Source: Lepidostoma basale (taxonomy: Eukaryota > Arthropoda > Insecta > Trichoptera > Lepidostomatidae). From it: a stretch of 64,000 bases of DNA. The DNA lies in NCBI GenBank assembly GCA_022606425.2, contig JAHDVF020001366.1, positions 62,001 through 126,000 of the forward strand. The letters run 5' to 3'. The notes under the pieces were generated by a model. The model was given only the letters and a program-made list of their open reading frames with translations. It did no database searches and was not told the DNA's origin. The translations under genes and the position numbers were made by a program. Shown here one piece after another: positions 3,776 through 58,520 of this stretch; the stretch's first letter is position 1, and each line of letters starts with the position of its first letter.

Positions 3776-5428
3776 TATCAAAATTTATATCGTTATTTCG
3801 ATGATGGTGGCAAAACCATTTAAAGTGAAGTAAAGTAAATTCAGTATGTTTATTTTATTCCATAAAACAAATAGGAGCAGTAGAAAAGAGAAAAATGTAT
3901 GAATTAGTCCTTTAAATTATTTTATTTTTTAAATGTATTTTTTTAGCTTTCTAGATTGACGACAGTGCAATTATTATTTATTTATTATTTCGATTTTTTT
4001 TTGCATTTCTTAGTAATTTTATTAATGTATAAAAAAGATACGTGAATTGATTACAGATGAAAACATCCATTTTCGAAAATTTCCCCGTAATATTCAAACG
4101 CTTAAACTAGTAAGATATTCTTAGGAAATTGAAAATAACTTTGTGATCCACAAAATATTTAAATAGCCTCCATCTTTATGTGTAAAAATATAATAAAAAT
4201 TAAACAAATAAATACTAATATAAAAAACGCATTTAAAATTCGATAAAATAATTTAAATTTAAAAATTAACCTGGGCCATTTGTTATAAGTACTAAGTATT
4301 ATTTTTTATCAGTAAAAACTAATAAATAAAATATATTATTATAATTATATTACAACGTATATTACTTTGGAACTATATTACGATGGAATTACTAACTTAT
4401 TAATACCTAAGTATATTACTATGGAATTCCACAGTGTTATAGCCTTAGCGTTCAATTAATAAAATATTCGACATTTTATGATAGCCTAGCAAGTGAAACA
4501 TTTCATTTCCTCTACAACACATTGTTTTTTTAGAATCGGGATATTTTCTATAATATTTAATCAGGGCCTTTACATCGTTGTTCAATAAACAATAAAAAAC
4601 ATATGTATGAAATGCTGAAACTGGTTTTCAATTAAATTTATTATTGATTCTAATGAAATATAAAGAAAAAATTAAACATGGAGCAAAGTTATAATTTAAC
4701 ATAATTGTAAACGAAATATTCCCGCTTAAATATTTTAAATAATTGTTTGCTGTGTAACATAACAGATTTCCTGTCTTATAAACTAAATACATAAGTAGTC
4801 GCATTACTAAAGCCTAAAATTCTTTGTTCTCTATACAGCATACAACTCTAAATAGGGCAAAATTATGACTGTGAAACAACGTGTATTCGCGAGCTTTTAA
4901 GTTTTAAATAATTTCCTCTTCATTAAAATAACTCACAGGAAACTAACTCACGAAGGTTTAGCGTATATTTACTTTATTTGCCTTCGGATTAGATTTTCAT
5001 GGATCTCAATTGCTGTTAAGACTTGTTTTTTAATTACCAAATCACATAATTTAGTCTATTTTAAAGGTAGGTATGCTACGCATTTTGTAAATACTAAAAA
5101 TGTAATGAATTAAAGTTAATGAAGCTTACTTTGATGGAACATCTCTTCAAAGGAAATATGTGGGTGAATGCTAAAGAAAAAGTCCCTATTTTCAATACAC
5201 ATTTTTTTTACATAATTTTAATTTAAGAACAAAATAGCACGTAATTCTCCCTAATAAAATTTCTTCGTAATACGATAATAACCTCATTGTAAAAGATCGT
5301 TAATTTAATAAATATAATGGCATCGACATTTTACACTTTTGTATAGAAACATAAAATTTTTATTAAATATCATAAAGAATCATGAAAGTTTATCTTGAAT
5401 TCCAAATTCCATTGCCTTACCTTCCTTA
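3776..5428. other. AT-rich gene-free stretch
   Basis: Over 1.6 kb without a coding signal, tRNA or recognisable transposon terminus. Very AT-rich. It ends at the A that forms the target site of Helitron A. Confidence 0.5.
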
Positions 5429-8159: not shown

Positions 8160-8369
8160 TTATTTTGTTAATGAGCCATATTGGTGCATGTTGCAATTCT
8201 TCTTTATTTTCCATTCCACTGAGTAATTCCAACAGCACACATACCCAAATACACTATGAGATACTTCAGCTTTCTTAGTTTTTCTCAGAAAACAAATGCT
8301 GTGATAGGTAAACATATCCTTATATGCAGCATTAGCTGCTTCAGTTGGAAGAGTCCAGTAATATTCCAT
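8160..8369 (-). CDS. Unknown 69-residue ORF inside Helitron A
   Basis: The minus-strand ORF starts MEYYWTLPTEAANAAYKDMF and is rich in Cys, Trp and Tyr. It is open in both Helitron copies (the partner is 11733-11948), with a few replacements and a 2-residue indel. No LINE, hAT or helicase motif is visible. It could be a captured host exon or a chance frame in an element of recent origin. A deleted remnant (TEAANAV...) lies in the 430-bp units of Helitron C. I do not recognise it. Confidence 0.35.
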   Translation of the reverse strand: MEYYWTLPTEAANAAYKDMFTYHSICFLRKTKKAEVSHSVFGYVCCWNYSVEWKIKKNCNMHQYGSLTK

Positions 8370-8447
8370 TTTTGGCCATTAAATTCTACATTATGCTGAG
8401 ATTTAAAATATTCAAAGATAATTAAATTGCTTTCAGGTTATTTCATT

Positions 8448-8644
8448 TGCTTGAGGATGGGGAAGACAACGCAGAAGATAATGGATTGCGCATGTGCAGA
8501 GGATGGGGAAAACAACGCAGAAGATACTGGAATTCGCATGTCCAGAGGATGGATCCCACACTTCGATATATGCGTATCACAAGACAATGTTGTTATCTTT
8601 ATGAACTAATTTGGAATGGTATGTACAGGTTTAAATTGGATTAA
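8448..8644 (+). pseudogene. LINE-P fragment with 46-bp internal duplication
   Basis: Reads RRRYWNSHVQRMDPTLRY in one frame. The block GAGGATGGGGAAGACAACGC recurs 46 bp later (8453, 8499, with a third start at 8545). Because 46 is not a multiple of three, the duplication shifts frame. Found again, inverted, in Helitron B at 11458-11665. Confidence 0.7.
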
Positions 8645-8689
8645 TTGGTTTAATTCGTTACATAAGAATATAGACATTTTATGTTTACT

Positions 8690-8747
8690 ACTCCATGATA
8701 CATTCTCATCTGTCTTACCTTTCCTGTATTTGGGGCTTTATTACAAA
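8690..8747 (+). pseudogene. LINE-C RT tail, 5' half, cut by Helitron B
   Basis: Encodes MIHSHLSYLSCIWGFIT of a CR1-like RT C-terminal domain. The frame resumes at 13595 with KKATEIQVIQNRAVR. The intact version (11407 to 11084, minus) shows the two halves are contiguous in the parent, so this is the precise insertion point of Helitron B. Confidence 0.85.
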
Positions 8748-9053
8748 CTAGCTGACCCGGCAACGCTTCGCTATTGCTAAATTCGAGTACATAAATAAAC
8801 CCAATATATATTCAACAAATACAATTAAAGTTCAATAACAATTCGTTTATTTATTGGATTAAATGCCATGTGTATGGATGCAAAAATGTGTGTCTATATC
8901 TTTAAAACAAAGTTTCAATCCAAGCAAACTCGCTGTGAATTATAAACTTGAATACATATTACTAAGGTAATTGAAAAACTATTTTTTGAATATTTTATAT
9001 GAAATTTAATAATCAAATAAACAATATTATATCACATTTGCAGAAAACATTCA

Positions 9054-9380
9054 TTATATTAAAGAAACAAAACTCTTGATTTTGTTGTCCATGAAATTCA
9101 CATCAGAGCCAATAAAGTAAGTTTCTACGATCGTGATTTCGGCACTGCGAGTCCGCTGGCGTGGAATAGTAATATAGATGATAATACTACAAAAGCCTCC
9201 CTTCCCGACTTCCACAACTGTATCCCTCGCCGCTCTGCGCCATTGACCTCCTGCCACTCGTTTAATGTCATCAGACCATCTTGCTTGTGATCTGCCAGAA
9301 TTTGTGTAGCTGTTTCTCTTTCGCCACTCCAGGCCAGAAGATCTTATCACCCGTTGTCCTTGCTTTATGACCGATCCCAT
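9054..9380 (-). pseudogene. RTE-like C-terminal fragment in Helitron B
   Basis: The minus-strand frame contains RSQARWSDDIKRVAGGQWRR then AARD, the RTE-type end (R-x-x-RW-DDIK-x-AG-x-W-x-x-x-A-x-D). It runs without stop into non-LINE sequence. The same 108 residues occur inverted in Helitron A at 15111-15440. Confidence 0.75.
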
Positions 9381-9599
9381 TCCATTTAAACATTAGTTAT
9401 TTTACACGCTGCATCGGCAACTTTGGTCCGATCCTTGATTCATCAATTTTGGGCCCTGGAATTAAAAAAAAAAAAATTTGAATTGCCATAAGGCGGACAC
9501 CGAAGAGGCGCATAAGGCAAAATTTAAATTTCCATACAATGAATGAATTACAACTGTTTTTCACTTGTTTGCTGAAGATATTCTTCATATAAAAGGCAG

Positions 9600-9955
9600 T
9601 TCATGCTATATGCATAATAATAATAATAATAATTAGGCTAATTTGTCAAATTAACTAACTAACTAACTAACCATCACGCCGTCTCCCCGAAAGTGTAAGC
9701 AGAGAGAATGGACTGTCACACTTTTACTGATGCGGCACTCCATCCTTCTCTTTTCGCCCCGCGGGAGACGCGGTGTGATGGGTTGCGAACCTCATCGCCA
9801 CCAATAGGCATCTCCCGCGCACACTTCGATCGTCCAACACCCACAAAATAAATCTAAAACAAATAATATAAAATACAATGATATAAAATAAAATAACAAA
9901 ATAAAAATAATTTTACACAAAATGTTCTTTTTAGACGGTGCACATATTGTCTATT
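9600..9955 (-). mobile_element. SINE-T copy in Helitron B
   Basis: The plus strand reads (TAAC)n, CCATCACGCCGTCTCCCCGA, then the SINE-T body with GGAGTGCCGCATC-like and GCACACTTCGATCGTCCAAC blocks. Oriented minus, with the GTTA tail at about 9652-9672. Absent from Helitron A at the matching place (15010-15035), so it is younger than the A/B common ancestor or lost from A. Confidence 0.75.
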
Positions 9956-10289
9956 TAATTTATAATATGTTCCACGTATCCACTGTTTTTTAATTTAGCA
10001 CATAATGTAATAACACATAATGTTTTTTTCGATGTTGCACATGTTGACTTGGACGATCCGGACATTTGTGTTTATTTAATTTAAGTAACACGTATCCACC
10101 ATTTTTTAAATTATCTGTAGTAAGGCACTTAACCAGCAAGAACTTGAAAATAATATTGAAGAAATGATTCAAATTGTCATTGGAACAAATGAAAAATTTA
10201 TTTCTACACCTGTCAAAATTCTTTACAAAAACGATAAAACTAATAAAACCTTTTAATCTGATTAATTTGTCAAATTAATTAAACTAATC

Positions 10290-10465
10290 AGATTTTAAAG
10301 GTTGGTCATGTTAGAAGTCGGAGGAATCGACATGCGTGTATGACTCGTTGTATGAATGTGGAGGAAGCTAGAGAGGTTTGCCAGGATAGAGTAGTGTTAT
10401 GGTCCATTCTCTCTGCCTACCCCTGTGGGGAAACGGCGTGATGGTTTGTTTGTTTGTTTAATTTG
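10290..10465 (+). mobile_element. LINE-T 3' end in Helitron B
   Basis: Encodes VGHVRSRRNRHACMTRCMNV (C-terminal Cys block) and ends CTACCCCTGTGGGGAAACGG, CGTGATGG, (TTTG)n. The stem-loop CCCC-loop-GGGG and stop codon TGA in GGCGTGATGG match other LINE-T copies. Counterpart in Helitron A: 14505-14668, minus. Confidence 0.8.
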
Positions 10466-10479
10466 TATAATCGCCGTTT

Positions 10480-11420
10480 TCGTGAATAGCTCACCTCAAG
10501 GGCGCTTTGACATTGTTTTTAGTCATGAAAGGTGCATGTGACAACAGCGAAATCACGATCGTAGAAACTTAATTTATTGGCTCTGATGTGAATTTCATGG
10601 ACAACAAAATCAAGAATTTTGTTTCTCTAAACATATGAATGTTTTGTGCAAATGTGATATAATATTGTTTATTGATATACAGACAACCGTTGTTAACATT
10701 TTATGCGATAATTTGAAAAGGTGGGTTTTTAGGTGATATTTAAAGTCTGTCGGATTGTCAATGCATCTGAGGCGTGCAGGAAGCATATTTCAGGCGGACG
10801 AACCTACTACTGTGAAAGCCCGAGCAACACAAAATTCAGATATACTCGTATAGGTGGCACGTTTGGGAATGTGCTTAATTATTGTCTATAAACTGTAAAT
10901 TTAAAAACCTTACCTGAAATTAATAATGGAATTTTCATATATGAATGAAAACTACTAAAAGTAGCTTATGTGTAATGTAAAAATTAATTTTAAGTTGATC
11001 AGATTGAAGTTTTTGGTTCGACATCATTATTAAATCATTAGGGAGTTTATTAAATTCTGTAGAGGCTATAAATTGTAAGGATTTTACACCGAATCTAGTT
11101 GAACGCAATGCTTCTTATTCTGTGAGCGCGTATCATGCTGGTGTACGTCCGTATTGAATATTGGTCGAGTATTAGAGCGCGTTGATGACTTTATTATTTG
11201 TATTATAGTTTTAGTGATCTCTAATTTTGGATGGATTTGAAATGGAATTATTTTCGTCTGAGAATATAGGGCCCTTACATGAGTGTACCACGGTAGACGG
11301 AAAATATATCTAACAGCCCGATTTTGGATCACCTGAATCTCATTAGCTTTCTTCTTTGTAATAAAGCCCCAAATACAGGAAAGGTAAGACAGATGAGAAT
11401 GTATCATGGAGTAGTAAACA
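10480..11420 (-). pseudogene. LINE-C (CR1-like) RT C-terminus and 3' UTR, Helitron B
   Basis: Minus-strand residues run LSYLSCIWGFITKKKANEIQ, then VIQNRAVRYIFRLPWYTH; this is the thumb/C-terminal domain that follows the RT palm in CR1-like LINEs. The 3' part encodes a PTDFKSHLKTYLF-like block and ends with the family 3' terminus (GGCGCTTTGACATTG...). Homologous to residues 250-390 of the ORF at 56403 but a different subfamily. Confidence 0.8.
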
Positions 11421-11457
11421 TAAATTGTCTATATTCTTATGTAACGAATTAAACCAA

Positions 11458-11665
11458 TTAATCCAATTTAAACCTGTACATACCATTCCAAATTAGTTCA
11501 TAAAGATAACAACATTGTCTTGTGATACGCATATATCGAAGTGTGGGATCCATCCTCTGGACATGCGAACTCCAGTATCTTCTGCGTTGTTTTCCCCATC
11601 CTCTGCACATGCGCAATCCATTATCTTCTGCGTTGTCTTCCCCATCCTCAAGCAAATGAAATAAC
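11458..11665 (-). pseudogene. LINE-P fragment, Helitron B copy
   Basis: Inverted counterpart of 8448-8644, with the same 46-bp duplication and RRRYWSSHVQRMDPTLRY. The duplication therefore predates the split of A and B. Confidence 0.75.
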
Positions 11666-11732
11666 CTGAAATCAATTTCATTATCTTTGAATATTTTAAA
11701 TCTCAGCATAATGTAGAATTTAATGGTCAAAA

Positions 11733-11948
11733 ATGGAATATTACTGGACTCTTCTAACTGAGGCAGCTAATGCTGCATATAAGGATATGTTTACCTATCA
11801 CAGCATTTGTTTTCAGAGAAAAACTAAAACAGCTGAAGTAACTCATAGTGTATTTGGGTATGTGTGCTGCTGGAATTACTCAGTGGAATGGAAAATAAAG
11901 AAGAATTGCAACATGCAGATGCACCAATATGGCTCATTATCAAAATAA
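11733..11948 (+). CDS. Unknown 71-residue ORF inside Helitron B
   Basis: Partner of the ORF at 8160-8369. It starts MEYYWTLLTEAANAAYKDMF and ends NMQMHQYGSLSK. An acceptor-like stretch (TTTGTTTTCAG) occurs after the FTYHSICF codons, which could mean a frame running into intron-like sequence if it was captured. Function unknown. Confidence 0.35.
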   Translation: MEYYWTLLTEAANAAYKDMFTYHSICFQRKTKTAEVTHSVFGYVCCWNYSVEWKIKKNCNMQMHQYGSLSK

Positions 11949-12149
11949 TTTCAATCCCAATACAAAAATATCCCCATTAGACCAGTGGTCTCTCACAACC
12001 AGGCAATTATTTTATCAAAACTTAATATCTAATCCCAAAGATATAGATTTTCGCCCTGCCAGAACAATTTTACATTAAAACAACATTATTAAAATAGATT
12101 ATACCAATTAACTAATTATTACACAACGAAACGTCATAACCTAAAATGA

Positions 12150-12545
12150 CATTACCATTTTATGCGATAATTTGAAAAGGTGGGTTTTTAGGTGAGAATT
12201 AAAGTCTGTCGGCTTGTCAATGCATCTGAGGCGTGCAGGAAGCATATTTCAGGCAGCCCGAGCAACACAAAATTCAGATATATAGGTGGCACGTTTGGGA
12301 ATGTGCTTAATTATTGTCTATAAACTGTAAATTTAAAAACTTTACCTGAAATTAATAATGGAATTTTCATATATGAATGAAAACTACTAAAAGTAGCTTA
12401 TGTGTAATGTAAAAATGAGCCGGTTTTCATTCGCCACTCCAGGGTACATCTAATTCACTGATCATCCGTTGTTTGATTGATCTAATTCCATTTTAACGAA
12501 GTTATTTTGCACGCTGCATCGGTAATTTTCGTCCCATCTCTGATC
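12150..12545 (-). repeat. Duplicate of LINE-C 3' segment plus RTE scrap
   Basis: 12152-12420 repeats 10700-10980 in the same orientation (TTTATGCGATAATTTGAAAA ... CTTATGTGTAATGTAAAAAT) with a 23-bp deletion. It is followed by an RTE-like scrap (12425-12540) similar to the start of the 9380 fragment. An internal duplication private to Helitron B. Confidence 0.7.
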
Positions 12546-13375
12546 CGTTACTTTATTTTCCTAGAAATAAACGGAAAAAGTCATAAGAATTGTGTCATTC
12601 ATTCATATTGTAATTCATATTGTATATCATTAGAACTTTCTTACCGTTGCTGTGGTAATGTAACAATTTCCCTGACCAAAGTATGCGTATAAAGAAAACA
12701 GCAAAATAGAATAAACTGAAAATATATTTATGAATTAGAAATATAAATATTATATTATACTTACGGAAGCAAGTTTCTTCATATTCTTGTAGAGCTTCGA
12801 CGTCCAATATTTTATATTTTCGCTATCATCCTTTGAAATAACCTGAACAATTTAATTATCATTGAATATTTTTAATCCCAAAAACTTCATAACCTAAAAG
12901 TACCGAAACTTCATACCTACAAAATATTACGACGTACAAAGAAATTGTGACAGTTCAGAGACCACGTGACCAATCGAACGGCTAGAACTCTAGAAAACGA
13001 ATATCATTAAGTAATCACCGTCGAACGTAAGAGAAACGAATAAGTTTCAGCCACACGAAAAAATAAAATTTCGTTCATAACCTCAAATTGACGCGTAAAA
13101 ATTATACTCGCCAAAATTAAGAAGTATAATTACCTGTCTGCATTAGTGTACATTAAAATATGGCCAATAAAATATACTGTACCAATTAAACAACCAATTA
13201 TTTTAGTACGTAATAAGCAAAACGTATTAAGTATTATACATCCCAAAGTAAAACGCAATATATTGGACTGTCAGAAAGCAAAACACATTGTTGCCACTAC
13301 ACAAAATTACATGGAGACTGAATTCTCTCCAGACCGTGTCAAACGAATATAGACTCAAAAGATTGATACTCAGGT
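12546..13375. other. Helitron B interior without gene
   Basis: AT-rich. It includes an inverted relative of the 7539 repeat (12600-12690) and short frames without family resemblance. At 13376-13594 the Helitron 5' region, homologous to 5429-5660, begins (read on the minus strand). Confidence 0.5.
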
Positions 13376-13594
13376 GATACGAACATTAAGGTCTATATTC
13401 GTTTGCACTACGAAAATTTTCAATTAATTGATTAATTTATAAAGTTAATTAGAGCTCGATTAATAACGAAAATATGCCTATGACGACCGCTAAATTCCAA
13501 TTAGTCCATTCCCCAAGATACAGAAGGATCAGCTCAGGAATAACCTCAGAAATAGTCGACACACACCCGGAAGATCGCCTTTTATTTATATAGA

Positions 13595-14500
13595 TAAGAA
13601 AGCTACTGAGATTCAGGTGATCCAAAATCGGGCTGTTAGAAATATTTTCCGTCTACCGTGGTACACTCATGTAAGGGCCCTATATTCTCAGACGAAAATA
13701 ATTCCATTTCAAATCCATCCAAAATTAGAGATCACTAAAACTATACTACAAATAATAAAGTCATCAACGCACTCTAATACTCGACCAATATTCAATACGG
13801 ACGTACACCAACATGATACGCGCTCACAGAATAAGAAGCATTGCGTTCAACTAGATTCGGTGTAAAATCCTTACAATTTATAGCCTCTACAGAATTTAAT
13901 AAACTCCCTAATGATTTAATAATGATGTCGAACCAAAAACTTCAATCTGATCAACTTAAAAGTAATTTTTACATTACATTTTTACATTTTTACATTACAC
14001 ATAAGCTACTTTTAGTAGTTTTCATTCATATATGAAAATTCCATTATTAATTTCAGGTAAGGTTTTTAAATTTACAGTTTATAGACAATAATTAAGCACA
14101 TTCCCAAAGGTGCCACCTATATATCTGAATTTTGTGTTGCTCGGGCTTTCACAGTAGTAGGTTAGTCCGCCTGAAATATGCTTCCTGCACGCCTCAGATG
14201 CATTGACAATCCGACAGACTTTAAATCTCACCTAAAAACCTACCTTTTCAAATTATCGTATAAAATGTTAACAACGGTTGTCTGTATATCAATAAACAAT
14301 ATTATATCACATTTGCACAAAACATTCATATGTTTAGAGAAACAAAATTCTTGATTTTGTGGTCCATGAAATTCACATCAGAGCCAATAAAGTAAGTTTC
14401 TACGATCGTGATTTCGCTGTTGTCACATGCACCTTTCATGACTAAAAACAATGTCAAAGCGCCCTTGAGGTGAGCTATTCACGAAAACGGCGATTATACA
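13595..14500 (+). pseudogene. LINE-C RT tail, 3' half, Helitron A
   Basis: Continues the frame cut at 8747: KKATEIQVIQNRAVRNIFRL, then LDSVKSLQFIAS-like residues after a frameshift near 13862, LPNDLIMM, and further on a PTDFKSHLKTYLF block. Ends with the CR1-like 3' terminus (CGCCCTTGAGGTGAGCTATT). Mirrors 11340-10480. Confidence 0.8.
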
Positions 14501-14504
14501 AATT

Positions 14505-14668
14505 AAACAAACAAACAAACCATCACGCCGTTTCCCCACAGGGGTAGGCAGAGAGAATGGACCATAACACTACTCTATCCTGGCAAACCTCTCTAGCTTC
14601 CTCCACATTCATACAACGAGTCATACACGCATGTCGATTCCTCCGACTTCTAACATGACCAACCTTTA
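14505..14668 (-). mobile_element. LINE-T 3' end, Helitron A
   Basis: The plus strand reads (AAAC)n, CCATCACGCCGTTTCCCCAC, AGGGGTAGGCAGAGAGAATG. Minus-oriented C-terminus with the conserved stem-loop. Base-for-base counterpart of 10290-10465. Confidence 0.8.
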
Positions 14669-15110
14669 AAATCTGATTAGTTTAATTAATTTGACAAATT
14701 AATCAGATTAAAAGGTTTTATTAGTTTTATCGTTTTTGTAAAGAATTTTGACAGGTGTAGAAATAAATTTTTCATTTGTTCCAATGACAATTTGAATAAT
14801 TTCTTCAATATTATTTTTAAGTTCTTGCTGGTTAAGTGCCTTACTACAGATAATTTAAAAAATGGTGGATACGTGTAACATAAATTAAATAAACACAAAA
14901 GTCCGGATCGTCCAAGTCAACATGTGCAACATCGAAAAAAACATTATGTGTTATTACATTATGTGCTAAATTAAAAAACAGTGGATACGTGGAACATATT
15001 ATAAATTAAATAGACAATATTTTTTTTAATTCCAGGGCCCAAAATTGATGAATCAAAGATCGGACCAAAGTTGCCGATGCAGCGTGTAAAATAACTAATG
15101 TTTAAATGGA

Positions 15111-15440
15111 ATGGGATCGGTCATAAAGCAAGGACAACGGGTGATAAGATCTTCTGGCCTGGAGTGGCGAAAGAGAAACAGCTACACAAATTCTGGCAGA
15201 TCACAAGCAAGATGGTCTGATGACATTAAACGAGTGGCAGGAGGTCAATGGCGCAGAGCGGCGAGGGATACAGTTGTGGAAGTCGGGAAGGGAGGCTTTT
15301 GTAGTATTATCATCTATATTACTATTCCACGCCAGCGGACTCGCAGTGCCGAAATCACGATCGTAGAAACTTACTTTATTGCCTCTGATGTGAATTTCAT
15401 GGACAACAAAATCAAGAGTTTTGTTTCTTTAATAAAATGA
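15111..15440 (+). pseudogene. RTE-like C-terminal fragment, Helitron A
   Basis: 109 residues, almost identical to the minus-strand 9054-9380 copy, with ARWSDDIKRVAGGQWRRAAR. The RTE part stops near residue 60; the rest is read-through into Helitron 3' sequence. Confidence 0.75.
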
Positions 15441-15810
15441 ATGTTTTCTGCAAATGTGATATAATATTGTTTATTTGATAATTAAATTTCATATAAAATA
15501 TTCAAAACTTAGTTTTTCAATTACATTAGTAATATGTATTCAAGTTTATAATTCACAGCGAGTTTGCTTGGATTGAAACTTTGTTTTAAAGATATAGACA
15601 CACATTTTTGCATCCATACACATGGCATTTAATCCAATAAATAAACGAATTGTTATTGAACTTTAATTGTATTTGTTGAATATATATTGGGTTTATTTAT
15701 GTACTCGAATTTTGCAATAGCGAAGCGTTGCCGGGTCAGCTAGTTATATAATAATTAGCACTGAATCATTTCATTATGTATTCGATTTTCTAGCATTTTA
15801 TTATTAACGC

Positions 15811-17245: not shown

Positions 17246-17277
17246 AACATGTTTCAGACTAACAAGCCCTTCATCAG
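17246..17277 (-). ncRNA. Hammerhead-like motif, HH-D
   Basis: CUGAUGA core, extra A, an imperfect helix II (GGG...UCU type), GAAAC, AU, GUU. It directly abuts the tail of the SINE-T copy at 17281, so one may have inserted beside the other. Confidence 0.5.
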
Positions 17278-22745: not shown

Positions 22746-22782
22746 CTTTGTATTTTAACACTTTTTGTTTTTACTGAACTCA

Positions 22783-22814
22783 GACATGTTTCGGTTACAA
22801 GTAACCTTTATCAA
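22783..22814 (-). ncRNA. Hammerhead-like motif with U3-A8 core
   Basis: Minus strand: UUGAUAA core, one extra A, a perfect 6-bp helix II (GGUUAC/GUAACC), GAAAC, AU, GUC. Relative to CUGAUGA, C3 is U and G8 is A, which preserves pairing between the two. The remaining invariant residues match. This is the cleanest example of the altered core in the window. Confidence 0.55.
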
Positions 22815-22867
22815 TATATACAATTTTAACAGTCAAATAAAATAGATCAGTCACTTATATACTAAAT

Positions 22868-23042
22868 GGAGATCGAGTTATGTATAAAAGAGGAAGGGGT
22901 ATAATTAGGATTGAAGAGAGGGGAGATGTAACGGGAACATATCGAGCATCATCGATTCCCATGCTCGATATGTTCCCGTTACATCTCCCCTCTCTTCAAT
23001 CCTAATTATACCCCTTCCACTTTTATACATAACTTTATCTCC
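22868..23042. repeat. Near-perfect palindrome, 82-bp arms
   Basis: Left arm 22868-22949 and right arm 22961-23042 are inverted copies with only a few mismatches, separated by 11 bp. The arms include GATGTAACGGGAACATATCG and its complement. No coding sequence. A transcript would fold into a long hairpin. Confidence 0.9.
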
Positions 23043-23090
23043 GCGAAGAGATTTCCCGGGTTTCGGATTACGGTTATTTACAAATGTCAT

Positions 23091-23122
23091 TTGATAATGT
23101 CATGGGCAGGGAAAACATATCA
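23091..23122 (+). ncRNA. Hammerhead-like motif, HH-B, degraded
   Basis: UUGAUAA core followed by UGUCAUGGGCAGG and GAAAAC, AU, AUC. Helix II and the GUC triplet have decayed, but the downstream family sequence (CATTCACATAAAATA...CTTCTAGAGAACAGACG) is typical of HH-B. Confidence 0.4.
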
Positions 23123-23779
23123 TTCACATAAAATACAATCAAACTTCTAGAGAACAGACGTGTTCACTAATATTAATTGTTTAATAAATAAGTACTCAAG
23201 TGGCCATGTAAAATACAGCATCCATAAACAACATAAGAAATAGATATATAAACAATATTTCATGCACATCTCGCTTTTAATACGTTGTTCCACAATAACA
23301 AAACAAACAGAGGGCTTAAATTACTCCTTGCACAAAACAACCCTTTTACATTACATCAAAATCTGTCAGATATTAATTAAAGTCCTCGTTAGATCATCCC
23401 TTTCTGGTGAGGCGTCGTGCGGAACGCTTGACCAAAACAGACCGGTTACGCACTGCGGGCGGAAATCAAAACAAATTATTATTCTTGTCTCGAAGATTTG
23501 ACGATGATTGTACTCTCTTGAACCACGGTACGAGGAATACTACACAGTAAAATTACTACAGTAGTAACAGTAACTGTTTTATTGCTTTAATGAGAAACAT
23601 TGCAACTGCATAATGTAATTGTAATTATTTATGAAATTTGAATCTTCTCTTATAATTATCTTAATTAATGTAGGCGGATTGTTGAACCCACTATATATAT
23701 GTGCATGAAATGTATAACATTTTATTTATTTTTTATTTATTATAACACTAATGATTTATATCAATGATACTATAATAGA
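23123..23779. other. No gene recognised
   Basis: HH-B family flank to about 23165, then unassigned sequence. Short frames only. Confidence 0.4.
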
Positions 23780-25887: not shown

Positions 25888-25901
25888 TATGTCCATCACA
25901 T

Positions 25902-25932
25902 TTGATAATGCCTTAGACAGGCGAAACGTGTA
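25902..25932 (+). ncRNA. Hammerhead-like motif, HH-B
   Basis: UUGAUAA, U, helix II GCCU/AGGC around UAGAC, GAAAC, GU, GUA. The cleavage triplet is GUA, which still fits GUH. It carries the U3/A8 core. Confidence 0.5.
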
Positions 25933-26352
25933 ATTTACATAAAATGTAATAAAATTTCTGGGAAACAGACGTTTATATTCGAATCAATTATTCTGTATGT
26001 ATTGTTGAATGCTTCATTATTAATAATTATCATCCCTTTCAACTGATCCATTAATCAAATACAGTTACATCCTTGTTCATTGAAATAGCGTAAACATAGG
26101 TATTTAGATGTGTATTTCCACACATTTAATACAAAACATTACTCGAATATTTGAAACAGTACGATTACGTGCATTCTACTCGTAAAATAGAGGGTTGATT
26201 TTAACCCGGGAATGACAAAGAACTTTTGCACACAATGTAAAATGGACTATTCAGTTGGTAATTCAGTTGAAAAACAGTGTAAATTTGTCAATAAACTTTA
26301 GTAGCGAAAACTATACTATCTATAGGTTAAATTCTTTCTACATTTCCAGACA
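25933..26352. other. HH-B flank and AT-rich DNA
   Basis: The HH-B family flank (AAAATGTAATAAAATTTCTG) continues to about 25985. No gene after that. Confidence 0.5.
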
Positions 26353-28897: not shown

Positions 28898-29188
28898 GAC
28901 AGCTGTTTCATCAACGAAAAAAAATGTCGCGTAAAATAAAATGCAATTCTGATACTTAAGACAAAGTTTTTTAATTTAACATCCTATAACGTTAAAGTAT
29001 TATAGTGTTTCTGCTAAAAAATACCAAGAACAACCACCCCTTTTCAGTTTTTTTTGATATGTAAGGATCATAATGAAAATATCATTATCATCCGGCCACA
29101 TGAAAATCAAAAATTAGGAAAATTTGACATTTGACATATATTTTTGTAACACCTGATGATGTCAACATTGGTTGATGAAACAGCTGTC
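28898..29188. ncRNA. HH-A inverted pair; plus copy intact
   Basis: The plus copy 29153-29188 has an intact CUGAUGA core, U, GUCAAC/GUUGAU helix II, GAAAC, AGCU, GUC. The minus copy (28898-28920) keeps GACAGCTGTTTCATCAAC but lost the rest by deletion. About 230 bp lies between them. Confidence 0.6.
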
Positions 29189-37573: not shown

Positions 37574-38640
<1,067 letters not shown>

Positions 38641-40659: not shown

Positions 40660-40700
40660 TACACCTGAAGATGGAGGTATCCTCTGAAACATGTCGTGTA
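40660..40700 (+). ncRNA. Hammerhead ribozyme-like motif, HH-E, most complete
   Basis: Helix I UACAC (40660-40664) with GUGUA (40696-40700), 5 bp; core CUGAAGA (40665-40671, fits CUGANGA); extra U; helix II GGAGG/CCUCU around UAU; GAAA (40686-40689); C-AU; GUC with predicted cleavage after 40695. All invariant residues are present. Helix III can form only one or two pairs alone, but ACAUGU is self-complementary, as in dimeric hammerheads. Confidence 0.7.
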
Positions 40701-40851
40701 TTTAAAATTTTATTTTATTAAAAAGTGGTTTTAACAATGTTTTTTTTAATTCCTTAAGTAGATAATTTTTTTAGTTGGTAAAAATGTTCTTAGTGTAAAA
40801 GAATACGAATGAAAACGTCTGTTAGAATTTTTTATAATGTTTTATGTGAAT

Positions 40852-40941
40852 GACATCTTATGCCTATCTTAGGCATTATCAAATGTAATACGCACAAATG
40901 TGATACACATTTATTAATGCCTTACATAGGTGAAACATGTC
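40852..40941. ncRNA. Inverted pair of HH-B motifs
   Basis: Minus 40852-40882 (UUGAUAA, GCCUAAGAUAGGC; the GAAAC part is decayed) and plus 40911-40941 (UUAUUAA, U, GCCU/AGGU, GAAAC, AU, GUC). HH-B family flanks extend outward on both sides (GAAAACGTCTG / ACAGACGTTTTCATTCG). Confidence 0.5.
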
Positions 40942-41357
40942 ATTCACATTAAATATAATAAAATTTCTAGAAAACAGACGTTTTCATTCGAAATTTAATT
41001 ATTTAATACAGAGTTTTAAATCATTGTTCTAGAAACAATAAGAGTATCTTGGGAGAGACAATGATACTCGTATATCGAAGATCATAAAAAATATATTTCT
41101 AACCATCGCGCCGTTTCCCCGGAGGTGTTGGCAAACATAATGGACCGCCATACTGCTCAGTCCTCACACACCTCTCTAGCTTCCTCTACATTCGTACATT
41201 GTAAGATGCACGCTCGTCGATTTTTCGACTTCGAATGTGGGCGCCTTTTATTATTTGATTAATTGGGTCAATTTCCTTGGTCTTCTACGGCTTATCTTTC
41301 CACTCACACTGCTTGTATACATTTATGCTATTTTTTACTCGTCCATTCGTTCCATAT

Positions 41358-41616
41358 CTTATCAGACGACCTTCGTGGCCGAGTGGTAAGTGCATCGTCT
41401 GCCACCCCGAAAGTTCCGGGTTCGATTCCCGGCGAGGGCAGTGTGATTGTCACACTGTCATTGGTCTGGTGTGGGATTCATGTGACAATAAAATGGCGAT
41501 AGATTAGCTACCTATCACATGTCACGACAATCACTATGGAAGCTCTAATATCGTTTACATCGATTTGGCTCAAGCTATCATGATGTAAAGAGCGATTCAA
41601 CAAAATAATAATAATA
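41358..41616 (+). mobile_element. tRNA-derived SINE inside LINE-T
   Basis: A box TGGCCGAGTGGT (41376-41387), B box GGTTCGATTCC (41419-41429). Unlike a tRNA gene it has no matching acceptor stem at the 3' end and continues into the family body (ATTGGTCTGGTGTGGGATTC, AATAAAATGGCGATAGATTA, GAGCGATTCAACA) with an (ATA)n tail. The target is the LINE-T CCATATGTCC site. Confidence 0.88.
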
Positions 41617-45785: not shown

Positions 45786-45837
45786 TTTCAGGAACAGACC
45801 AAAGGTATATAAGTAGAAGAAGAATAAGAAAAATTCT

Positions 45838-45916
45838 GACAAATTTGTTTCGCTTTGCGAGGGCATTCTCAAACTCCTGTTTTGATAATGCCCTCGCAAT
45901 GCAAAACAAATTTGTC
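45838..45916. ncRNA. Palindromic pair of HH-C motifs
   Basis: Minus 45838-45872: UUGAGAA, U, GC...GC, GAAAC, AAAUUU, GUC. Plus 45882-45916: UUGAUAA, U, GCC..., CAAAAC, AAAUUU, GUC. Loop III here is the 10-nt self-complement ACAAAUUUGU. Helix II is weak. Confidence 0.45.
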
Positions 45917-46020
45917 ACAATTTATCAAATTTATATAAATTTAATCCAAGTAAAACCACTAAACAATACTTGTCTACTATTATAAATTACTTGAAACGTA
46001 TTTAAAATGTACTTAAAAAA

Positions 46021-46703: not shown

Positions 46704-46905
46704 TTAAACATTTTATAACTGTTAAAGAAAAAAGTTCGTTTTTACATCACAATTGTATTTATTTTACGACAGCTGTTTCATCAACCAATGCTGACATCAT
46801 CAGGTGTTAATGATGTCAACATTGGTTGATGAAACAGCTGTCGTAAAATAAATACAATTGTGATATAAAAACAAACTTTTATCATTAACAGTTATAAAAT
46901 ATAAT
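46704..46905. ncRNA. ~200-bp palindrome built of two HH-A motifs
   Basis: Arms 46704-46803 and 46806-46905 are inverted copies (ATAACTGTTAA, TCACAATTGTATTTATTTTA, CGACAGCTGTTTCATCAACC). The minus copy 46768-46803 has the full CUGAUGA...GAAAC-AGCU-GUC core with a weakened helix II (GUCAGC). The plus copy has lost CUGA (UUAAUGA). Confidence 0.6.
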
Positions 46906-51304: not shown

Positions 51305-51670
51305 ACCTAGCGGATCATTGAGCTGCCGCTCTTTTTTTTATGGATCATCGCTCACCCGCTCACCAAAAAGATTCGAATCTTTGAGTCGACTCGTGAGCGG
51401 ATTGCCCATCCCTATCTCTGAAATGTCAAATTTGAATTGCGTGTTACAGATTCGTAAGTAAAATATTTATATTTCTAATTCATATATATCTTCAGTTTAT
51501 TCTATTTTGCCGTTGAAATGAATACAGATTATATTTCCGCATTACATATTTCAAAGTTTTAGTTCTAAATTAGGTATATCGAATAGAAATGAAGTTACAT
51601 ATCGTTTTACTTACGTATTATTTTAGGTTATGTTATGAATCTACATGGAAAAACGTTAAATTCTAAGTAA

Positions 51671-52957
51671 CAATTCTATGAATTGGTATAATCTATTTTA
51701 ATAATGTTATTTTAATGTAAAATTGTTCTGGCAGGGCGATAACCTATAATATCTTTTGGATTAGACGATTTACTTCAGCTGTTTTAGTTTTTCTCTGTTA
51801 TGCTGTGATAGGTAAACATATTCTTACATACAGCATTAGCTGCCTCAGTTGGAAAAATCCAGTAATATAACATTTCCAAATGTTCTGACGTTCCCACGCC
51901 AGTGTTTTTTTTTTAATATACTGCTCATTTTAATATAATTATTTGATTTTTGCAGAGATGCCGACGCTAAGGATGATACCAGGAAAGACTCTTTGAGATA
52001 GGGTGAGGAACACGGCTATCCACGATATCTCCAAGGTGGAAGATGTCGTGAGATGGGGCACGCAACGCAAGATACTGGCATGTATGGATCCCACACCTCA
52101 CAATTCTATGAATTGGTATAATCTATTTTAATAATGTTATTTTAATGTAAAATTGTTCTGGCAGGGCGATAACCTATAATATCTTTTGGATTAGACGATT
52201 TACTTCAGCTGTTTTAGTTGTTCTCTGTTATGCTGTGATAGGTAAACATATTCTTACATACAGCATTAGCTGCCTCAGTTGGAAAAATCCAGTAATATAA
52301 CATTTCCAAATGGTCTGACGTTCCCACGCCAGTGTTTTTTTTTTAATATACTGCTCATTTTAATATAATTATTTGATTTTTGCAGAGATGCCGACGCTAA
52401 GGATGATACCAGGAAAGACTCTTTGAGATAGGGTGAGGAACACGGCTATCCACGATATCTCCAAGGTGGAAGATGTCGTGAGATGGGGCACGCAACGCAA
52501 GATACTGGCATGTATGGATCCCACACCTCACAATTCTATGAATTGGTATAATCTATTTTAATAATGTTATTTTAATGTAAAATTGTTCTGGCAGGGCGAT
52601 AACCTATAATATCTTTTGGATTAGACGATTTACTTCAGCTGTTTTAGTTTTTCTCTGTTATGCTGTGATAGGTAAACATATTCTTACATACAGCATTAGC
52701 TGCCTCAGTTGGAAAAATCCAGTAATATAACATTTCCAAATGGTCTGACGTTCCCACGCCAGTGTTTTTTTTTAATATACTGCTCATTTTAATATAATTA
52801 TTTGATTTTTGCAGAGATGCCGACGCTAAGGATGATACCAGGAAAGACTCTTTGAGATAGGGTGAGGAACACGGCTATCCACGATATCTCCAAGGTGGAA
52901 GATGTCGTGAGATGGGGCACGCAACGCAGGATACTAAGATACTGGCATGTATGGATC
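51671..52957 (+). repeat. 3 x 430-bp tandem repeat in Helitron C
   Basis: Copies start with CAATTCTATGAATTGG at 51671, 52101 and 52531, i.e. an exact 430-bp period. Copies differ by only a few bases (TTGTTC/TTTTTC, TGTTC/TGGTC, a T-run of 9 or 8). Each unit holds a shortened remnant of the unknown ORF, a GTTCTGGCAGGGCGATAACC block and a LINE-P piece (KVEDVVRWGTQ). Near-identity points to recent amplification. Confidence 0.95.
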
Positions 52958-58289: not shown

Positions 58290-58383
58290 GGCAATATATA
58301 ATATCAAAATAAATTATTAATTTCGTAATTAATACGAATGAAAATGTCAGTTTTCTAGAAGTTTTATTATATTTTATGGAAAT

Positions 58384-58456
58384 GACATGTTTCGCCCTTC
58401 TAAGGCATTATCAAATGTTAAACATTTGATAATGCCTTAGAAGGGCAAAACATGTC
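58384..58456. ncRNA. Palindromic pair of HH-B motifs
   Basis: Minus 58384-58414 is the best HH-B: UUGAUAA, U, GCCUU/GGGC helix II, GAAAC, AU, GUC. Plus 58426-58456 is the same with CAAAAC. The palindrome extends outward into GTTTTCTAGAAGTTTTATTA and its complement, about 95 bp per arm (58325-58520). Confidence 0.55.
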
Positions 58457-58520
58457 ATTACCATTAAATATAATAAAACTTCTAGAAAACTGACGTTTTC
58501 ATTCGTATTAATTATTTAAT

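What the first reader, a model, noticed from the sequence alone, without database searches (positions are those of the whole stretch)
22783..22814. Hammerhead variants with a compensated U3-A8 core
A whole dispersed family (HH-B, plus the HH-D-like copy here with a perfect 6-bp helix II) reads UUGAUAA where the consensus is CUGAUGA. The two changed positions, 3 and 8, pair with each other in the known structure. A joint C-to-U and G-to-A swap, seen at 22783, 25902, 58384, 45882, 23091 and 38271, is a covariation across many copies. It suggests an RNA still selected as a ribozyme with a core that standard searches, which demand CUGANGA, would miss.
Basis: partly seen in the sequence, partly recalled or inferred. 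Interest (0 to 1): 0.88.

Follow-up and report, generated by a model that had tools for sequence, protein, structure and literature searches.

The report
Hammerhead-like ends of Penelope-like retroelements
The repeat looks like the hammerhead-ribozyme-like end of a Penelope-like jumping gene, in which one core base pair was swapped for an equivalent one and then inherited by thousands of copies; the swap itself was already known in nature, but here it is the fixed state of whole repeat families.

Summary
All six cited UUGAUAA sites exist, but three have lost GAAAC, and they fall into three families (B, E, D). In the own genome (769 Mb) the motif YTGANRA-N10-18-GAAACATGTC has two main states: 13,898 C3-G8 and 19,525 U3-A8, against 1,073 U3.G8 and 936 C3.A8. 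The single-change classes are nearly equal, so copies decay with little pairing constraint; the pairing signal lies between families and is inherited, not repeated. C3-G8 relatives lie behind a GIY-YIG endonuclease frame: Penelope-like element ends. Family D (the cited copy) aligns outside the core with a C3-G8 relative and keeps helices I and II in subfamilies that are nearly all U3-A8: the best case for a compensated ribozyme. Family B (four of six sites) has only 2 bp of helix I. The copies scanned carry, with one exception in 70, one extra nucleotide before helix II. Natural U3-A8 hammerheads were reported in 2011; their fixation in high-copy repeat families, unseen by Rfam, I did not find in print. 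Cleavage is untested.

The parts
22808..22814 (-). family D core, UUGAUAA (positions 3-9, U3 and A8)
22793..22806 (-). helix II of the family D copy: arms 22801-22806 and 22793-22798; one unpaired A (22807) between A9 and the helix
   Evidence: fold
22788..22792 (-). GAAAC (G12 A13 A14 A15.1 C15.2)
22783..22785 (-). GUC; predicted cleavage after C17 (22783)
   Evidence: cleavage inferred from the hammerhead model
22815..22824 (-). helix I 5' strand (8 of 10 positions pair with 22773-22782)
22773..22782 (-). helix I 3' strand
22868..23042 (.). palindrome upstream of the family D copy, read as the truncated head-to-head partner end
   Evidence: 92% self-match; reading is inference
25898..25990 (+). 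family B arm, UUGAUAA, GAAAC intact
58326..58418 (-). family B arm (cited as 58384), GAAAC intact, head-to-head with the next
58422..58516 (+). family B arm, partner; AAAAC
23087..23172 (+). family B arm, AAAAC
38223..38303 (-). family B arm (cited as 38271), CAAAC
45828..45926 (.). inverted-repeat element of family E (cited as 45882); one arm UUGAUAA with AAAAC, other arm UUGAGAA with GAAAC
40665..40695 (+). family F motif, C3-G8, helix I ACAC/GUGU
   Evidence: helix I by eye
17246..17277 (-). family A motif, C3-G8 (core 17271-17277)
   Evidence: low end counted by hand
29153..29188 (+). family C motif, C3-G8, loop AGCU; further copies with cores at 2413+, 46797-, 793- (C3-G8), 2390- (U3.G8), 44683+ (A3.G8)

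Best explanation
The motif is the minimal type I hammerhead-like end of a Penelope-like element (PLE) family. In the ancestor of family D the core pair C3-G8 was replaced by U3-A8, and later copies inherited it. Family D RNAs would fold into helix I, the core, a 5-6 bp helix II and a 2-bp helix III (A15.1-U16.1, C15.2-G16.2, palindromic ACAUGU), and would cut after C17, most likely weakly or as dimers as other PLE hammerheads do. Shown: sequence, family structure, homology of D1 and D2 to a C3-G8 family, helices that can form. Inferred: that founder RNAs cleaved, and that cleavage trims PLE transcripts. Single genomic copies drift close to neutrally. Family B is a second, more abundant U3-A8 family that lacks a proper helix I and is probably not a working monomeric hammerhead.
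For: Descriptor far above chance. Own genome: family D 27-mer within 3 mismatches 1,950 places, reversed control 0; helix-II-anchored D pattern 1,224, first 100: U3-A8 97, U3.G8 2, C3.A8 1, C3-G8 0. D1 aligns with C3-G8 family A' outside the core: z 11.9 upstream, 4.6 downstream; D2 with A' 3.7 and 5.3 (one representative each). A' sits 116 nt behind a GIY-YIG frame (Pfam PF01541, 23.3 bits, cut-off 22.6, E 8.2e-5). D2: helix I pairs 1-3 in 7 of 7 copies, pair 4 in 5, pair 5 in 6; D3 pairs 1-4 in 4-5 of 6. Helix II pair 5, not fixed by the search, is mostly A-U there and G-C in 5 of the first 100 (my count by eye). Families G and F have helix I of other sequence, 6 bp in 12-16 of 16 and 4 bp in 8-10 of 11. 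Head-to-head partners exceed tail-to-tail: 20 against 6 of 30 U3-A8 loci, 10 against 3 of 30 C3-G8 loci, as reported for PLEs (PMC3846280, passages). In an Anolis PLE C3G/G8C compensation partly restores cleavage (PMC11167929, passages). A viral-collection hit, L001, is a U3-A8 hammerhead with an 8-bp helix III and one mismatch among the first six helix I positions.
Against: No cleavage data. D1 helix I has two mismatches; two folded D copies do not give the hammerhead fold as minimum free energy, and are no more stable than shuffles (z +1.0, +0.9). One extra nucleotide between A9 and helix II in all 12 window motifs and in 69 of 70 fetched copies with helix II of 4 bp or more (some copies seen twice in overlapping loci). 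D3 does not align with A' (z -0.4 down, 1.1 up) or with D1 (0.8, 0.5), only downstream with D2 (27.4). No GIY-YIG within about 1.5 kb in 8 of 8 family D loci, so D is tied to PLEs only through A'. Of 20 stretches taken beyond GIY-YIG places, 3 have the F motif, 1 a decayed one, 16 none. Family H, 1,915 places, 89 of the first 100 A3.G8, multiplied without the pair.
Confidence: 0.62

Rival explanations
1. Inactive relic: U3-A8 families descend from founders that no longer cleaved; the hairpin and GAAACATGTC persist because the element end serves another role (binding of the PLE protein, RT start, promoter, start codon).
For: Near-equal U3.G8 and C3.A8; family B with 2 bp of helix I makes up most of the U3-A8 places listed (about 93 of the first 100 by eye); family H with unpaired A3.G8 amplified; no significant excess of core conservation among 11 B arms (0.879 against 0.835 in the tail, resampling p 0.14); in the Anolis PLE, ribozyme mutants still insert in vitro (PMC11167929, passages).
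Against: In D the only core positions that changed are the two that pair, to a Watson-Crick pair; helix I pairs hold in D2 and mostly in D3, with other letters than in F and G.
Confidence: 0.33
2. One reading: recurrent independent C3-G8 / U3-A8 covariation across many copies under ongoing selection.
For: Strong joint distribution genome-wide (13,898 and 19,525 against 1,073 and 936); a small significant excess of the wobble U3.G8 over C3.A8 (p 0.0024).
Against: The states are nearly fixed by family; copies share flanks; singles are nearly symmetric. At most two origins (B and D) are visible, and even these could be one: B flanks match no other family tested beyond z 3.3.
Confidence: 0.03
3. 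Chance hairpins in AT-rich DNA.
For: The heptamer alone is at chance frequency.
Against: 12 against 0.27 with helix II and GAAAC; genome counts of hundreds to thousands against 0-5 for the reversed pattern.
Confidence: 0.02

Closest known systems
Minimal type I hammerheads of Penelope-like elements (reviews PMC6155905, PMC7761336, passages; Cervera and de la Pena 2014 and Lunse 2017 cited there, not held)
   Same: Thousands of dispersed copies, very short helix III, in or by PLE ends
   Different: U3-A8 core in D, B and E; whether published PLE motifs also carry the extra nucleotide before helix II could not be checked
Natural U3-A8 hammerheads (PMC3088659, section 8 read)
   Same: Same joint exchange at 3 and 8; such cores told there as already proven active in vitro
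   Different: There 'several' examples; here the near-fixed state of families with thousands of copies, with an extra nucleotide
Anolis PLE PAc hammerhead (PMC11167929, passages)
   Same: Ribozyme at the PLE pLTR/ORF start; cut site given as 26 bp past the start codon; in the family F copy at 40665 C17 is base 25 of an ATG that starts at A9
   Different: PAc has C3 and G8; the compensated core there (C3G/G8C) was engineered
Inverted pLTR structure of Adineta Penelope elements (PMC3846280, passages)
   Same: Head-to-head inverted copies most frequent
   Different: The passages seen say nothing of ribozymes

Membership tests
hammerhead ribozyme (type I) | Core U4 G5 A6 A9, G12 A13 A14 | tested here: met
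   Family D window copy and relatives (the searches that found the relatives demanded these letters); GAAAC lost in 3 of 6 cited sites
hammerhead ribozyme (type I) | Positions 3 and 8 form a Watson-Crick pair (consensus C3-G8) | tested here: met
   U3-A8 in D (97 of first 100 among Y3/R8); letters differ from the consensus; published as a natural variant
hammerhead ribozyme (type I) | Helix I of several pairs beside the core | tested here: inconclusive
   D2 and D3 4-5 bp, D1 2 bp, mismatch, then more; B 2 bp only, so not met for B
hammerhead ribozyme (type I) | Helix II directly next to A9 and G12 (10.1-11.1) | tested here: not met
   One extra nucleotide in all 12 window motifs and 69 of 70 fetched copies
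hammerhead ribozyme (type I) | A15.1-U16.1, H17 and a helix III | tested here: met
   ACAUGU gives 2 pairs with a 2-nt loop, C17; stability not shown
hammerhead ribozyme (type I) | Match to an Rfam hammerhead model | tested here: not met
   None at E up to 10; two viral C3-G8 controls matched at E up to 1, though below their gathering scores
hammerhead ribozyme (type I) | Self-cleavage after H17 | not testable with these tools
   needs a bench assay
Penelope-like element | RT and GIY-YIG endonuclease beside the motif | tested here: inconclusive
   GIY-YIG domain for A'; pieces of the same frame before G and F motifs, two of them at E 0.005 only; not found in 8 of 8 D loci; RT part not examined
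Penelope-like element | Head-to-head inverted ends | tested here: met
   also GIY-YIG pairs in - then + order on C453, C542, C1107, C1549, C1139

The most novel reading that the evidence does not exclude
A Penelope-like lineage (D1-D3) fixed a compensated U3-A8 core and kept it as a working ribozyme while helices I and II changed letters, together with an extra nucleotide before helix II: a natural hammerhead subtype in thousands of copies that present models do not see.
Probability: 0.35. Interest if true: 0.55.

Novelty: new variant of a known kind. Interest (0 to 1): 0.4.

Why it matters
If family D RNAs cleave, U3-A8 is not a rare curiosity but a state that a retroelement lineage can live with, and descriptor or Rfam searches undercount hammerheads in such genomes. 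The four 3/8 classes and the pairs D / A' and D1 / D2 / D3 give a natural mutant series to ask whether PLE hammerheads must cleave at all, which a review calls still a mystery (PMC7761336, passages).

Tried and rejected
Chance reading: rejected (and genome controls). Copy-level selection on the pair: set aside because U3.G8 and C3.A8 are nearly equal; the small excess (1,073 to 936, p 0.0024) leans the other way. Core conservation in B arms: not significant. Family H first looked like an A3-U8 case; the census shows A3.G8 with decay: first 100 A3.G8 89, A3.A8 6, U3.G8 2, A3.C8 1, A3-U8 1, C3-G8 1; that pattern fixed N7 as T and left out G3. That its G8 and A9 may join an extended hairpin is by eye. 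Viral scans for family B and C patterns: 0 and 0; prokaryote scan: 1, in a MAG (L123), taken as chance. Viral classes with a canonical helix II: C3-G8 at least 120 stretches, scan cut at its limit, U3-A8 2, U3.G8 2, C3.A8 1. By my script, which knows only helix III closed by a loop, 104 of 131 C3-G8 copies have helix III of 2 or more and helix I of 3 or more; none of the other five passes; L001 fails by a mismatch at the second helix I pair. A first head-to-head count with 3 substitutions was too lax and was replaced by 1 and 2. A first GIY-YIG word search had a wrong spacing and found nothing; tblastn replaced it. The organism was not identified; moth or butterfly was a guess, untested.

Limits: the genome counts demand GAAACATGTC, so families C, A and E are largely left out, and A3.G8 of family H is outside the 2x2 table. 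Listed places are the first 100 in contig order. In one search families are set by regular expressions of mine: D3 is defined as N7 = A, and helix II pairs 1-4 of D are fixed by definition, so their pairing there is no evidence. Shuffles were single-letter. Overlapping loci (for example L163/L164, L200/L201) share pairs, so head-to-head counts are not all independent. One of the 20 stretches (L250) begins about 1.7 kb beyond its GIY-YIG match and is not comparable; the rest cover about 750 nt after it.

Full report
1. What is there. On the minus strand at 22783-22814 the window reads UUGAUAA, one A, GGUUAC UU GUAACC, GAAAC, AU, GUC. Beyond the cited stretch lies a helix I: 22815-22824 pairs with 22773-22782 at 8 of 10 positions. 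The five other cited sites carry UUGAUAA, but 45882 and 23091 have AAAAC and 38293 has CAAAC where GAAAC is needed. A descriptor of any 3/8 state with helix II of 3 bp or more (2 or more G-C) and GAAAC gives 12 sites in the window against a shuffle mean of 0.27: seven C3-G8, three U3-A8, one A3.G8, one U3.G8. Rfam finds no hammerhead in the window at gathering or at E up to 10.

2. Families in the window. Self-comparison groups the sites. Family B arms start at ACAT, four bases before the core, run for about 93 bases and often stand head-to-head (58326-58418 and 58422-58516; 40803-40889 and 40906-41003). Eleven B arms: T at position 3 in 10, A at position 8 in 10, GAAAC intact in 4; the core is not significantly better conserved than the rest. 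45828-45926 is an inverted repeat with other flanks, family E. Families A, C and F are mainly C3-G8.

3. The own genome. The window lies in a 769-Mb genome of 1,572 contigs. Counts of YTGANRA-N10-18-GAAACATGTC, both strands: U3-A8 19,525, C3-G8 13,898, U3.G8 1,073, C3.A8 936; the reversed-pattern control gave 5, 0, 4 and 1. RTGANYA gave 413, control 10. From either paired state the two single transitions lead to U3.G8 and to C3.A8, so neutral decay predicts equal numbers; they are within 15% of each other, with a small significant excess of the wobble (p 0.0024). The two peaks are therefore family states; copies in place show little constraint on pairing.

4. Family D is the strong case. The D 27-mer has 1,950 places within 3 mismatches, control 0. 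With four pairs of helix II fixed and Y3, R8 allowed, 1,224 places; of the first 100, 97 are U3-A8, 2 U3.G8, 1 C3.A8, none C3-G8. In that list helix II pair 5 is mostly A-U and G-C in 5 of 100 (count by eye); the G-C copies may be one branch. Sorted by my rules, D1 (10 distinct copies), D2 (7) and D3 (6, defined by N7 = A) keep U3-A8 in 9, 7 and 5. D2 helix I pairs 1-3 hold in 7 of 7, pair 4 in 5, pair 5 in 6; D3 pairs 1-4 in 4-5 of 6; D1 has mismatches at pairs 3 and 6 and pairs at 1, 2, 4, 5, 7, 8 in 8-10 of 10. The flanks of D1 align with those of the C3-G8 family A' (z 11.9 upstream, 4.6 downstream), those of D2 less (3.7, 5.3); D3 aligns with D2 downstream (27.4) but not with A' or D1. 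So the exchange most likely happened within a family tree whose relatives are C3-G8. By the recalled consensus about eleven core letters are otherwise invariant; that two changes fall on the bonded pair among them, in matching letters, would be about a 1 in 100 accident (one in 55 position pairs times about one half; my estimate, after the fact).

5. Family B is weaker. Helix I has pairs 1 and 2 in 11 of 12 copies and then fails: pairs 3 and 4 in 2 of 12 each. It is nevertheless most of the U3-A8 places listed. Its flanks match no other family tested beyond z 3.3, so a second origin of U3-A8 is possible but not shown.

6. What carries the motif. At C1:1342505- / 1343926+ two copies stand head-to-head and both contain the end of the same reading frame, which has a GIY-YIG domain (PF01541, 23.3 bits, cut-off 22.6), followed after 116 nt by the C3-G8 motif. 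Pieces of that frame lie 173-201 nt before G motifs (L191, L204 at E below 1e-6; L197/L198 at E 0.005 only) and 322 nt before an F motif (L199). Of 20 stretches taken beyond GIY-YIG places, 3 have the F motif by the strict scan, 1 a decayed F, 16 none; one of the 16 (L250) was taken too far downstream to count. The genome has 62 GIY-YIG matches among 150 scored of 541 candidates, two with frames of 758 aa. So these are ends of Penelope-like elements for A', and probably for F and G; D is linked only by flank homology, no GIY-YIG lying in 8 of 8 D loci. With one substitution allowed, a head-to-head partner lies within 1.4 kb for 20 of 30 U3-A8 loci (tail-to-tail 6, direct 2 up and 4 down), 10 of 30 C3-G8 (3; 4 and 6), 9 of 20 U3.G8 (3; 3 and 0) and 4 of 8 D (1; 0 and 1). 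Head-to-head is the most frequent form in Adineta (PMC3846280, passages), and cleavage and extension of both target strands by the Anolis PLE protein (PMC11167929, passages) could give it; that link is my inference.

7. How it most likely works. By the hammerhead model U3-A8 replaces C3-G8 as the core pair and cleavage follows C17. Helix III is only AC-AU-GU, self-complementary, which fits the dimer mechanism suggested for PLE hammerheads (PMC7761336, passages). Against activity: the fold program does not give the hammerhead fold for two D copies or a B copy, while it does for a G and an F copy, and none of the five is clearly more stable than shuffles (D +1.0 and +0.9, G +0.6, F -1.0, B -0.5); the extra nucleotide breaks the usual junction, though C3-G8 relatives share it; and family H, 1,915 places with 89 of the first 100 A3.G8, multiplied without the pair (whether H is a PLE was not tested).

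8. What is known. Perreault 2011 states that C3 and G8 covary to U3 and A8 in several natural hammerheads and that such cores had been proven active in vitro (PMC3088659, section 8). C3G/G8C partly restores the Anolis PLE ribozyme (PMC11167929, passages). In a cave-cricket satellite C3 and G8 were mutated in only 4 and 2 of 198 sequences (PMC2837043, passages). A U3-A8 hammerhead turned up here in a viral contig, L001, which Rfam missed at E up to 1 while matching two C3-G8 controls below their gathering scores. I found no report of U3-A8 as the fixed state of a PLE family in the listings of searches, which cover open-licence papers only; the papers most likely to hold one were not held.

9. 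Verdict.

Noticed in passing
own genome, family H; 1,915 places: A hammerhead-like hairpin family with A3.G8 (89 of first 100), where G8 and A9 may join an extended hairpin; it multiplied without a 3-8 pair. PLE origin untested.
   Followed up: partly
L200/L201; window 58326-58516, 46710-46900, 2360-2448: Head-to-head inverted copies are commoner than tail-to-tail or direct ones, spaced from about 30 to over 1,000 bases.
   Followed up: partly
family B arms, for example 25898, 58422 and L152-L181: Most B copies seen start at the same ACAT four bases before the core, single and paired alike (by eye); no explanation for this fixed 5' edge.
   Followed up: no
L001:11086-11109 (viral contig): U3-A8 hammerhead (N7 = A) with 8-bp helix III, missed by Rfam at E up to 1.
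   Followed up: partly
5181-5339 (+): Weak, broken similarity to the GIY-YIG piece (tblastn E 0.005), perhaps a PLE remnant in the window.
   Followed up: no
51670-52935: Tandem array, 430-bp unit, 2.9 copies, 99% alike.
   Followed up: no
8185-15745: Long inverted repeats, 98-99% complementary, a recent inverted duplication or an assembly matter.
   Followed up: no
41369-41440 (+): tRNA match above the gathering score.
   Followed up: no
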